DNA of 64,000 nt from Lineolata rhizophorae (taxonomy: Eukaryota > Ascomycota > Dothideomycetes > Lineolatales > Lineolataceae). How positions within the stretch are numbered: position 1 is the stretch's first letter; every line of letters starts with the position of its first letter. A program made the position numbers and the translations under genes. The stretch is taken from NCBI GenBank assembly GCA_010093515.1, contig MU001676.1, positions 1,092,415-1,156,414 of the forward strand, given 5' to 3'. The notes beneath the pieces were generated by a model that saw only the letters and a program-made list of their open reading frames with translations, did not search any database and was not told where the DNA came from. This document shows, in pieces, positions 9,668-11,492 of this stretch.

Positions 9668-11492
9668 ATGGGGAAGGGGAAGCTGATGCTCCTTCTCTTC
9701 GCTGGGGGCATTTCCCTGTCGAGCGCCGATGTCTTGGAGAGCGGTACCGGATACTCGAGCCGGTACTGGGACTGCTGCAAGCCAAACTGCGCGGCCCAGG
9801 ACGTGGCCGCCGTGAGCCGCCCGCCCATGATCTGCGACAGCAATGACACCCCTTTCTTCGACTTTAGTGCCGCGTCGGGCTGCAGTGGCGGTAACGCCTT
9901 CATGTGCTCTGACTACACACCCATCGGTGTTACCAGTGATCTGTCGTTTGGCTTCGCATCGGTGAGCATCGCGGACAGGGATGCCAGCAGTGTGTGCTGC
10001 GGCTGCTTCCGGTGAGTGATTCTTTGACTTGTTTTCAGCGGTTCACTTCTCTGGAATGCATTGCTTCACTCAGTTTTCACTTAATCGCTACTATTCTTTA
10101 CTTCATTCACGCAACTTAAGCAATTGGGTTGATCTGCTAACTCCACTTCAGTGTCACTTTCACTTCTGGTCCTGTCACGGACAAGAGCATGATCGTCCAG
10201 GCCCTCGACTCGGCTCAGAACTTCGGCGACAACCAGTTCAATCTGCTAATCCAGGGCGGCGGCGTGGGAACTTCCAACGGGTGCGAGACCCAGTGGGACG
10301 CTCCCGAGAGCGGTTGGGGCGCGCAGTTCGGCGGCGTGTCGCACCGCGACGACTGCGAGATGCTCCCCGAGGCCCTACGCGGCGGCTGCTACTGGCGCTT
10401 CGACTGGTTCCGCAATGCCGACAACCCAGAGGTGTCTTGGAGCCGCATCCAGTGCCCCACTGAGTTGACGGACTTGTCCGGGTGCCGCCGCGACGATGAC
10501 CCTGTTCCCGGCACTCCAGTCCAGAGTACGACTACGACCACGACGACGCCTACGCCCACGCCTACTTCCACCGTCGTGCCGCATTACGGCCAGTGCGGCG
10601 GCAGGACGTACAGCGGGCCAACTGAGTGCGCCGAGGGCACTTGTACTTTCGTCACTGATTGTGAGTGTCTTAACTGATTCGAAGAGTTTCTAGGAGCGGA
10701 GACTCGGAGACCTAGAGGTATGTTTGCTAAGTGATTCGTTCGTATAGCCTTTTACCAATGCCTCATGCCGGGCGAGGAACCGGTTACCGCAACTACGACG
10801 ACGACCGCCGCAGCGCCGAGTGGTACAATCGTCGAATTGTGGGAGCAGTGCGGTGGCCGCGGGTGGGAAGGTCCCACGCAGTGCGAGGAGGGTACTTGTG
10901 TGGAAGTGGACGAATGTGAGTCACCTCCTCTAAATTAAAACTGGTCGACGCAATCTCCAAAACATACTGACTCGCTTTCCCTCTCGCGTCAAGGGTACCA
11001 CCAATGCCAATTACCCGCGGGCGACGGTAACCAAAATTCCCAACCCCCTGAGCAGCAACCTACCGAAAGCAGCGGAGACTGGTCTCCCCCGTGGGCCTCG
11101 GGCCGCCCCTGGGGGAGGGGATGGAGGAACGGTGGTGATAGGAGCTCTTGGACTGACTGGAATGGAGATAATCCACCACCCGAGCAGGCGCCTGAACCGG
11201 AGACGCCGGAGACTCCGGAGTCCCCCGAAACGCCTTCGCAACCAGAAGAGCCCGCCGCGCCCCAGGCCACCGTCGCGCAGCAATACGAGCAGTGCGGTGG
11301 CATGCTGTGGGAAGGGCCTACGAGGTGCGTCGAAGGCACCACGTGCACAGAGGTCGACGAGTGTAAGTCATCAATCCTTCCTTTGTTCCCCACGTCCCCT
11401 CCTATTCTAGACGCGTGATGTAACTCTTATTGAAAACGATGCTGGACTGACGGTGCGTGTTTGGTCTAGTCTACTCCCAATGTCTACGATAA
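9668..11492 (+). CDS. Secreted GH45-family protein with three CBM1 modules; two conserved acidic residues replaced by Asn
   Basis: Five exons, 9668-10011, 10152-10660, 10748-10915, 10994-11362 and 11470-11492, encode 470 aa. A signal peptide (about residues 1-20) precedes a GH45 domain (about 27-231) with the signature 'SSRYWDCCKPNC' and the conserved 'GGCYWRFDWFRNADNP'. Asp35 matches the catalytic base (Asp10 in the Humicola enzyme). The general-acid position (Asp121) is Asn145 (AAT) and the nearby Asp114 position is Asn138, so hydrolysis may be lost or weak. Three fungal CBM1 modules follow, near 258-290, 314-347 and 436-470, each with four Cys and aromatic face residues. The linkers are Thr/Pro-rich, Thr/Ala-rich, and long Trp- then Pro/Glu-rich. 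Introns 2-4 fall in phase 1 at the same place in each CBM1. It acts outside the cell on cellulose; whether it still cuts is open. Confidence 0.88.

What the first reader, a model, noticed from the sequence alone, without database searches (positions are those of the whole stretch)
9668..10660. GH45 domain in which the general-acid Asp and a second conserved Asp are both Asn
The GH45 fold is well conserved ('SSRYWDCCKPNC', 'RFDWFRNADNP', all expected Cys) and the catalytic base is kept (Asp35). The segment that reads SNHFDLNIPGGG in Humicola Cel45A reads 'DNQFNLLIQGGG' here: the general acid (Asp121) is Asn145, and Asp114 is Asn138. The codons are clear (AAC, AAT). Changes at Asp121 abolish activity in characterised enzymes. 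With three binding modules attached, this suggests a cellulose-binding or loosening protein, or a changed mechanism, rather than an ordinary endoglucanase.
Basis: partly seen in the sequence, partly recalled or inferred. Interest (0 to 1): 0.78.

Follow-up and report, generated by a model that had tools for sequence, protein, structure and literature searches.

The report
Cellulose-binding cellulase lacking its acid
A fungal gene encodes a secreted cellulase-like protein with three cellulose-gripping modules, but the residue that should cut the sugar chain has been replaced, so it most likely binds or loosens cellulose instead of digesting it.

Summary
The window encodes a spliced 470-residue, apparently secreted protein (five exons, 9668-11492): a GH45 subfamily-A domain plus three CBM1 modules. 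All 14 GH45 cysteines and the catalytic base (Asp35 = HiCel45A Asp10) are kept. The general acid is Asn145 (AAT) and the lid "assisting" Asp114 is Asn138 (AAC). None of 171 distinct bacterial GH45 rows has Asn at the acid position (164 Asp, 4 Glu, 2 Ala, 1 Ser). Five further positions conserved in at least 90% of rows also changed. The same genome has a canonical GH45 with every catalytic residue and a second acid-less GH45 (Asp to Thr) with a GPI-like tail. This gene holds 3 of the 5 CBM1 modules detected in the genome. Best reading: a retained GH45 pseudoenzyme that binds cellulose without hydrolysing it. It is not expansin-like in chemistry: expansins keep the acid and lack the base. Asp141 probably replaces the lid Asp114; that it is a new proton donor is possible but unproven. 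Beetle GH45 pseudoenzymes are published; no fungal one showed up in my eight literature searches. New variant of a known kind.

The parts
9668..11492 (+). whole coding span: five exons 9668-10011, 10152-10660, 10748-10915, 10994-11362, 11470-11492; 470 aa
   Evidence: introns of 140, 87, 78 and 107 bases at 40-48% GC against 63% in the CDS
9668..9727 (+). signal-peptide-like N terminus (residues 1-20)
   Evidence: reading of the translation; no predictor was used
9749..10488 (+). GH45 domain, residues 28-227 (interrupted by intron 10012-10151)
   Evidence: Pfam PF02015, 1.7e-58; PDB 5glx 5.7e-69
9770..9772 (+). Asp35 (GAC), equivalent of catalytic base Asp10
10219..10221 (+). Asn138 (AAC) at the lid 'assisting' Asp114 position
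10228..10230 (+). Asp141 (GAC) at position 117, candidate relocated lid acid
10240..10242 (+). Asn145 (AAT) at the general-acid Asp121 position
10582..10764 (+). CBM1 module 1 (split by intron 10661-10747); weakest of the three
   Evidence: 35.6 bits against 42.6 and 43.3 for the others
10840..11010 (+). CBM1 module 2 (split by intron 10916-10993)
11011..11283 (+). 91-residue linker before module 3: W/G/R-rich, then P/E-rich, unlike the T/P-rich linker before module 1
   Evidence: reading of the translation
11284..11486 (+). CBM1 module 3 (split by intron 11363-11469)

Best explanation
A secreted GH45 subfamily-A pseudo-cellulase. Shown: the gene is intact, the Cys framework is kept, the proton donor is an amide, several other conserved positions are altered, and three CBM1 modules are attached. 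Inferred: without a donor at the Asp121 position the domain cannot protonate the glycosidic oxygen, so it does not hydrolyse cellulose at a useful rate. The CBM1 modules hold it on cellulose, where the GH45 cleft serves as a further glucan-binding surface. The likely job is non-hydrolytic: coating or loosening fibres so that the fungus's GH6, GH7, AA9 and canonical GH45 enzymes gain access.
For: Acid is Asn; 0 of 171 bacterial rows has Asn there. Of 41 positions conserved in at least 90% of rows the window protein departs at 6 (W18A, A74S, N110D, G112A, D121N, P125Q), the canonical paralogue C21 at 0, 5glx at 1, 5h4u at 1. All 14 Cys kept. No stop or frameshift in 470 codons; GC3 0.74, no RIP-like dinucleotide signal. 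C21 keeps Asp10, Asp114 and Asp121, and its intron has the same position and phase as intron 1 here. 3 of the 5 CBM1 modules detected in the genome are in this gene. From papers (passages): the equivalent acid changed to Ala abolished activity of PcCel45A; beetle DVI4, acid to Val and Asp114 also changed, showed no activity.
Against: No assay, expression data or orthologue from another fungus could be obtained. Base Asp35 and the RYWDCCK strip are fully kept, which a purely binding role does not require (the strip also holds two Cys). Y147F, also present here, raised activity in CTendo45 (Y173F there), so not every change points to inactivity. Asp141 could supply a carboxylate. CBM1 module 1 has Ser at one of the usual binding-face aromatic positions (reading; face positions recalled). 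In PpCel45A one CBM1 gave more binding to crystalline cellulose than five, so more modules need not bind more tightly. Some bacterial rows that keep an acid depart at as many or more of the 41 positions (5-12), so the count of departures alone proves nothing. The window row has a long branch (0.77-1.06 against 0.18-0.27 for C21), so relaxed constraint cannot be excluded.
Confidence: 0.62

Rival explanations
1. Changed mechanism: Asp141 (position 117, on the lid loop) acts as proton donor with Asp35 as base, giving a slow or differently specific hydrolase.
For: Position 117 is Asp in 3 of 5 acid-less rows (window, C41, Myxococcus qinghaiensis L013) against 2 of 173 others, or Asp/Glu in 3 of 5 against 8 of 173. 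In 22 fungal and Myxococcales rows loss of Asp114 goes with an acidic 117 in 5 of 6, against 1 of 16 that keep Asp114.
Against: The pairing is with loss of Asp114, not clearly with loss of the acid: within the 22 rows an acidic 117 is found in 3 of 5 acid-less against 3 of 17 others, p = 0.10. L014 has Asp117 and keeps the acid, so Asp117 more likely stands in for lid Asp114. Tree-aware independent pairs are too few to test either link. The other 156 rows show no such pairing (0 of 23 against 5 of 133). The two Ala variants have Ser and Gln at 117. C41 has a lid insertion, so its alignment there is uncertain.
Confidence: 0.1
2. Decoy: an inactive paralogue that soaks up host-made inhibitors or CBM1-binding proteins, sparing the active enzymes, like PsXLP1 of Phytophthora sojae.
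For: Inactive GH12 PsXLP1 binds the inhibitor GmGIP1 more tightly than its active relative (review passages); a rice secreted protein binds CBM1 of various fungal enzymes (abstract and outline); three CBM1 on an inactive core would suit this.
Against: The host fungus is unnamed, nothing here shows that it meets a living plant, and no inhibitor of GH45 was identified.
Confidence: 0.12
3. A decaying cellulase gene caught before it gained stop codons.
For: Long branch; the same genome holds an apparent GH45 remnant on contig C23; CBM1 module 1 scores lower than the others and has Ser at one binding-face position.
Against: 470 intact codons and four GT-AG introns, 14 of 14 GH45 Cys, all three CBM1 over the Pfam cut-off.
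Confidence: 0.1
4. Sequencing error, or Asn restored to Asp after translation (deamidation or removal of an N-glycan).
For: Each change is a single G-to-A difference from an Asp codon.
Against: Two errors 21 bases apart together with five other altered conserved positions is unlikely. Neither Asn is in a sequon; the only one in the protein is at residue 59. Neither Asn precedes Gly, the fast deamidation context (recalled). Reads were not available.
Confidence: 0.03

Closest known systems
GH45 subfamily A endoglucanases (HiCel45A; 5glx, 6mvi, 1l8f and others)
   Same: 51% identity to the 5glx row, 48% to 6mvi and 1l8f, 43% to 5h4u; all Cys; base Asp; RYWDCCK strip
   Different: general acid Asp121 to Asn, Asp114 to Asn, A74S, G112A, P125Q, W18A; three CBM1
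Beetle GH45 pseudo-enzymes (DVI4, LDE9 and others; PMC6509783, passages)
   Same: inactive members of otherwise active GH45 sets, some with a changed acid, base or Asp114
   Different: animal genes; DVI4 has Val at the acid, LDE9 Asn at the base; no CBM1 arrays mentioned in the passages seen
PpCel45A of Pichia pastoris (PMC3247070, passages)
   Same: GH45 with several CBM1 modules (five)
   Different: active enzyme; CBM1 modules lie N-terminal; no introns
Expansins, loosenins, subfamily C GH45 (PMC9888185, PMC5829257, PMC10909974, passages)
   Same: GH45-like fold; expansins and loosenins act on cell walls without hydrolysis
   Different: they keep the acid and lack the base; here the base is kept and the acid lost. 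No DPBB_1 match in this genome at E 0.001 (exon by exon)
PsXLP1 decoy (GH12; review passages)
   Same: secreted inactive paralogue of a working glucanase
   Different: another family, an oomycete, inactivated by a C-terminal deletion
Acid-less Myxococcales GH45 found here (L013 Ser, L095 Ala, L108 Ala)
   Same: acid lost, base kept
   Different: bacterial; short branches; open frames of 256, 256 and 289 aa leave no room for a three-module tail

Membership tests
GH45 subfamily A (sequence family) | match to the GH45 family model and to subfamily-A structures | tested here: met
   PF02015 198.5 bits against cut-off 27; ten GH45 chain sequences matched (that they are subfamily A is partly recalled)
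GH45 subfamily A (sequence family) | conserved cysteines | tested here: met
   14 of 14 positions of the 1l8f row
Active GH45 subfamily A endoglucanase | catalytic base Asp10 | tested here: met
   Asp35
Active GH45 subfamily A endoglucanase | proton donor Asp (or Glu) at 121 | tested here: not met
   Asn145
Active GH45 subfamily A endoglucanase | assisting Asp114 on the lid | tested here: not met
   Asn138; Asp141 three residues on. Not universal: absent in 28 of 171 bacterial rows
Active GH45 subfamily A endoglucanase | endoglucanase activity | not testable with these tools
   no assay
Expansin / loosenin | acid kept and GH45 base absent | tested here: not met
   reverse pattern: base kept, acid lost
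Expansin / swollenin | second (CBM63, D2) domain | tested here: not met
   only GH45 and CBM_1 matched in Pfam at E 0.001
CBM1 cellulose-binding module | match to the family model | tested here: met
   three stretches, each over the cut-off
CBM1 cellulose-binding module | three aromatic residues on the flat binding face (positions recalled) | tested here: inconclusive
   reading: modules 2 and 3 have aromatics at all three places; module 1 has Tyr, then Ser-Phe-Tyr where the aromatic pair usually starts one residue earlier
GH45 pseudoenzyme | intact Cys framework, catalytic residue lost, paralogue with all catalytic residues in the genome | tested here: met
   (inactivity of this protein and activity of C21 are inferred)

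The most novel reading that the evidence does not exclude
Acid-less, base-kept GH45 proteins form a recurrent class, a mirror image of expansins: fold, disulphides and base are held while the proton donor is shed, by at least four changes on the tree built here (window/C41 counted once, and three Myxococcales). This fungus carries two of them, one tethered to cellulose by three CBM1 and one apparently GPI-anchored, and they loosen or bind cellulose without cutting. In the window protein the lid carboxylate has moved to Asp141, which may even serve as a new donor.
Probability: 0.2. Interest if true: 0.7.

Novelty: new variant of a known kind. Interest (0 to 1): 0.42.

Why it matters
How GH45-fold proteins can act on cellulose without hydrolysis is an open question that has been asked through expansins, which lack the base. 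A natural protein that loses the acid instead, carries three CBM1 and shares a genome with a paralogue that keeps every catalytic residue gives a clean pair for testing what the fold does when it cannot cut. It also warns annotation pipelines: this gene, and 3 of the 15 Myxococcales rows examined, would be counted as cellulases by family match alone.

Tried and rejected
Subfamily-C-like Asn mechanism (Newton's cradle): position 114 is Asn, as is Asn92 of PcCel45A (that the two positions correspond is my reading of the passages), but that mechanism needs the acid that this protein lacks. Rejected.

Link between Asp117 and loss of the acid: nominally strong over all rows (Asp: p = 1e-4; Asp or Glu: p = 0.0017), but it mostly follows loss of Asp114, gives p = 0.10 in the fungal-Myxococcales rows, and cannot be tested with so few independent pairs. 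Kept only as a rival.

RIP as origin of the Asp-to-Asn changes: indices near the window average, and the base before each changed G is G or C, not the T that RIP favours on that strand (recalled). Rejected.

Sister relation of the window gene and C41: one tree joins them weakly (76/46), another leaves them unresolved with a warning of long branches meeting. Without C41 the window row goes to C21 (89/86), and intron 1 is shared with C21 and not with C41. Two separate acid losses in this genome are therefore likelier, though the count of four changes treats them as one.

IMG/VR: 72 pattern matches, no relative. No relative from another fungus could be reached with the collections at hand, so orthologues sharing both Asn could not be sought. 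Structure prediction was not used: the stated rule asks for proteins that the DNA gives letter for letter, the spliced protein is not contiguous, and the tool's description promises no coordinates. The organism was not identified; 'fungus' rests on introns, CBM1, GH6/GH7/AA9 and a Fungal_trans domain.

Literature: open-access full text only. The listings of the eight searches (listings capped) and the papers opened showed no fungal GH45 described as lacking the acid; that is no proof of absence. Passages only: PMC6509783, PMC5829257, PMC3247070, PMC13084967, PMC9888185, PMC5811441, PMC10909974, PMC8960721. Abstract and outline: PMC9521807, PMC6549527. PMC7135978 was not held.

Full report
What is there. 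The window lies in a 31-Mb, 48-contig genome that is fungal by its content. At 9668-11492 a five-exon gene encodes 470 residues: a signal-peptide-like start, a GH45 domain (28-227), a T/P-rich linker, and three CBM1 modules. Each CBM1 is cut by an intron at the same place and in the same phase (codon split after its first base: T/CC, T/GG, T/TC), which suggests that the modules were multiplied as exon units. Of ten neighbouring open frames scanned, eight matched a family, among them MCM, Cdc27, tubulin cofactor D, Npa1 and Eap1: ordinary core genome.

The claimed residues. PDB search matched ten GH45 chain sequences; in the five alignments printed the acid motif aligns without a gap. Asp10 is Asp35. 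Asp114 is Asn138 (AAC). The general acid Asp121 is Asn145 (AAT).

How unusual it is. One scan of prokaryote contigs gave 80 loci (the best 80 of 157 relatives). It used a pattern that contains the base motif, so base conservation in those rows is biased; the acid region was not part of the pattern. Family searches over genomes gave 75 more loci (17, 13, 15 and 30) and two fetches of chosen Fibrobacterota places gave 40, 195 in all. One search listed more matches than I fetched and its list was itself cut. 193 of 195 loci gave a GH45 domain; 8 domains under 140 residues and 33 duplicates were dropped; 171 distinct rows stayed. At the acid position: 164 Asp, 4 Glu, 2 Ala, 1 Ser, 0 Asn. At 114: 143 Asp, 24 Gly, and one each of Asn, Ala, Pro, Ser. 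At the base: 167 Asp, 1 Glu, 3 gaps.

Which positions changed. At 41 positions conserved in at least 90% of rows the window protein departs at six: W18A, A74S, N110D, G112A, D121N, P125Q; C41 departs at seven; the canonical paralogue C21 at none. The count at 110 is generous, since three of the four GH45 structure rows aligned have Ser there. Ala74, Asp114 and Asp121 are named as important for activity in PMC6509783; 110, 112 and 125 lie close to the acid in sequence. None of the 14 Cys changed. Departures are not special to acid-less rows: some Myxococcales rows that keep an acid depart at 5-12 positions, the median bacterial row at 1. What counts is the acid itself. Y147F, another change here, raised activity when made in CTendo45.

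Paralogues. C21: complete, Asp10, Asp114 and Asp121 kept, ends after the GH45 domain, with an intron at the same position and phase as intron 1 here. C41: 274 residues, HFD to KFT (acid is Thr), A74G, a two-residue lid insertion, and a hydrophobic C terminus after a Ser/Thr-rich stretch that looks like a GPI signal (read by eye). C23: two matched pieces, about 104 model positions, the first of which keeps the acid; no match to the first part of the domain. So of three apparently intact GH45 genes in this genome two lack the acid. With C41 left out the window row joins C21 at 89/86; together, window and C41 join weakly, and long branches were warned of.

The cellulolytic setting. Exon-level matches suggest two GH7 and two GH6 genes (four matches each), AA9 at 11 places (22 matches), and no DPBB_1 expansin domain; grouping of matches into genes is mine. 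Five CBM1 modules were found in the whole genome and three are in this gene (lower bound). One of the other two lies about 530 bases downstream of AA9 matches on C11, in what reads as the same gene; the other is at the start of an SGNH-like protein on C13 (read by eye).

The binding modules. All three pass the Pfam cut-off, module 1 with the lowest score (35.6 bits against 42.6 and 43.3). By reading, modules 2 and 3 have aromatics at the three usual binding-face places (recalled); module 1 has Ser at the second and aromatics at the next two residues.

The lid. In 22 fungal and Myxococcales rows, loss of Asp114 coincides with an acidic residue at 117 in 5 of 6 rows, against 1 of 16 that keep Asp114 (p = 0.0013, rows not independent; tree-aware pairs too few to test). 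The other 156 rows show nothing of the kind (0 of 23 against 5 of 133). The modest reading is that Asp141 replaces the lid Asp114 in the window protein, leaving the acid position itself without a carboxylate.

Mechanism. Shown: gene structure, residues, conservation, paralogues. From papers: the acid is essential in PcCel45A (Asp114 there, to Ala); a beetle GH45 with acid to Val and a changed Asp114 was inactive, and its authors speak of pseudo-enzymes; inactive secreted hydrolases can matter, as decoys (PsXLP1) or within a digestive pathway (GH28 in beetles, abstract). Inferred: no useful hydrolysis, attachment to cellulose, a non-hydrolytic role. I put 0.62 on this, 0.1 on a changed mechanism through Asp141, 0.12 on a decoy role, 0.1 on decay and 0.03 on artefact or post-translational repair.

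Relation to the known. By sequence it is a GH45 subfamily-A member; as an active endoglucanase it fails a defining feature. It is not an expansin or loosenin: those keep the acid and lack the base. Multi-CBM1 GH45 is known and active in Pichia pastoris. GH45 pseudo-enzymes are known in beetles. The combination here, acid to Asn with three CBM1 in a fungus, did not turn up in the searches made. Hence: new variant of a known kind.

Noticed in passing
own genome contig C41, about 9251 down to 8310 (locus L009, minus strand): second acid-less GH45 (HFD to KFT) with a lid insertion and a GPI-signal-like C terminus; base and all 14 Cys kept
   Followed up: partly
own genome contig C23:538883-539195 (locus L010, about 1884-2196): apparent GH45 remnant in two matched pieces, one with a stop; no match to the first part of the domain
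   Followed up: no
   Followed up: partly
L017, L099, L101, L103: Myxococcales GH45 clade with acid Asp to Glu, Tyr8 to Ala or Asn and Ala74 to Arg together: possible specificity shift
   Followed up: no
window 10661-10747, 10916-10993, 11363-11469: all three CBM1 modules are split by an intron at the same codon and phase, suggesting duplication of exon units
   Followed up: partly
window 11011-11283: odd linker: W/G/R-rich stretch followed by P/E-rich stretch
   Followed up: no
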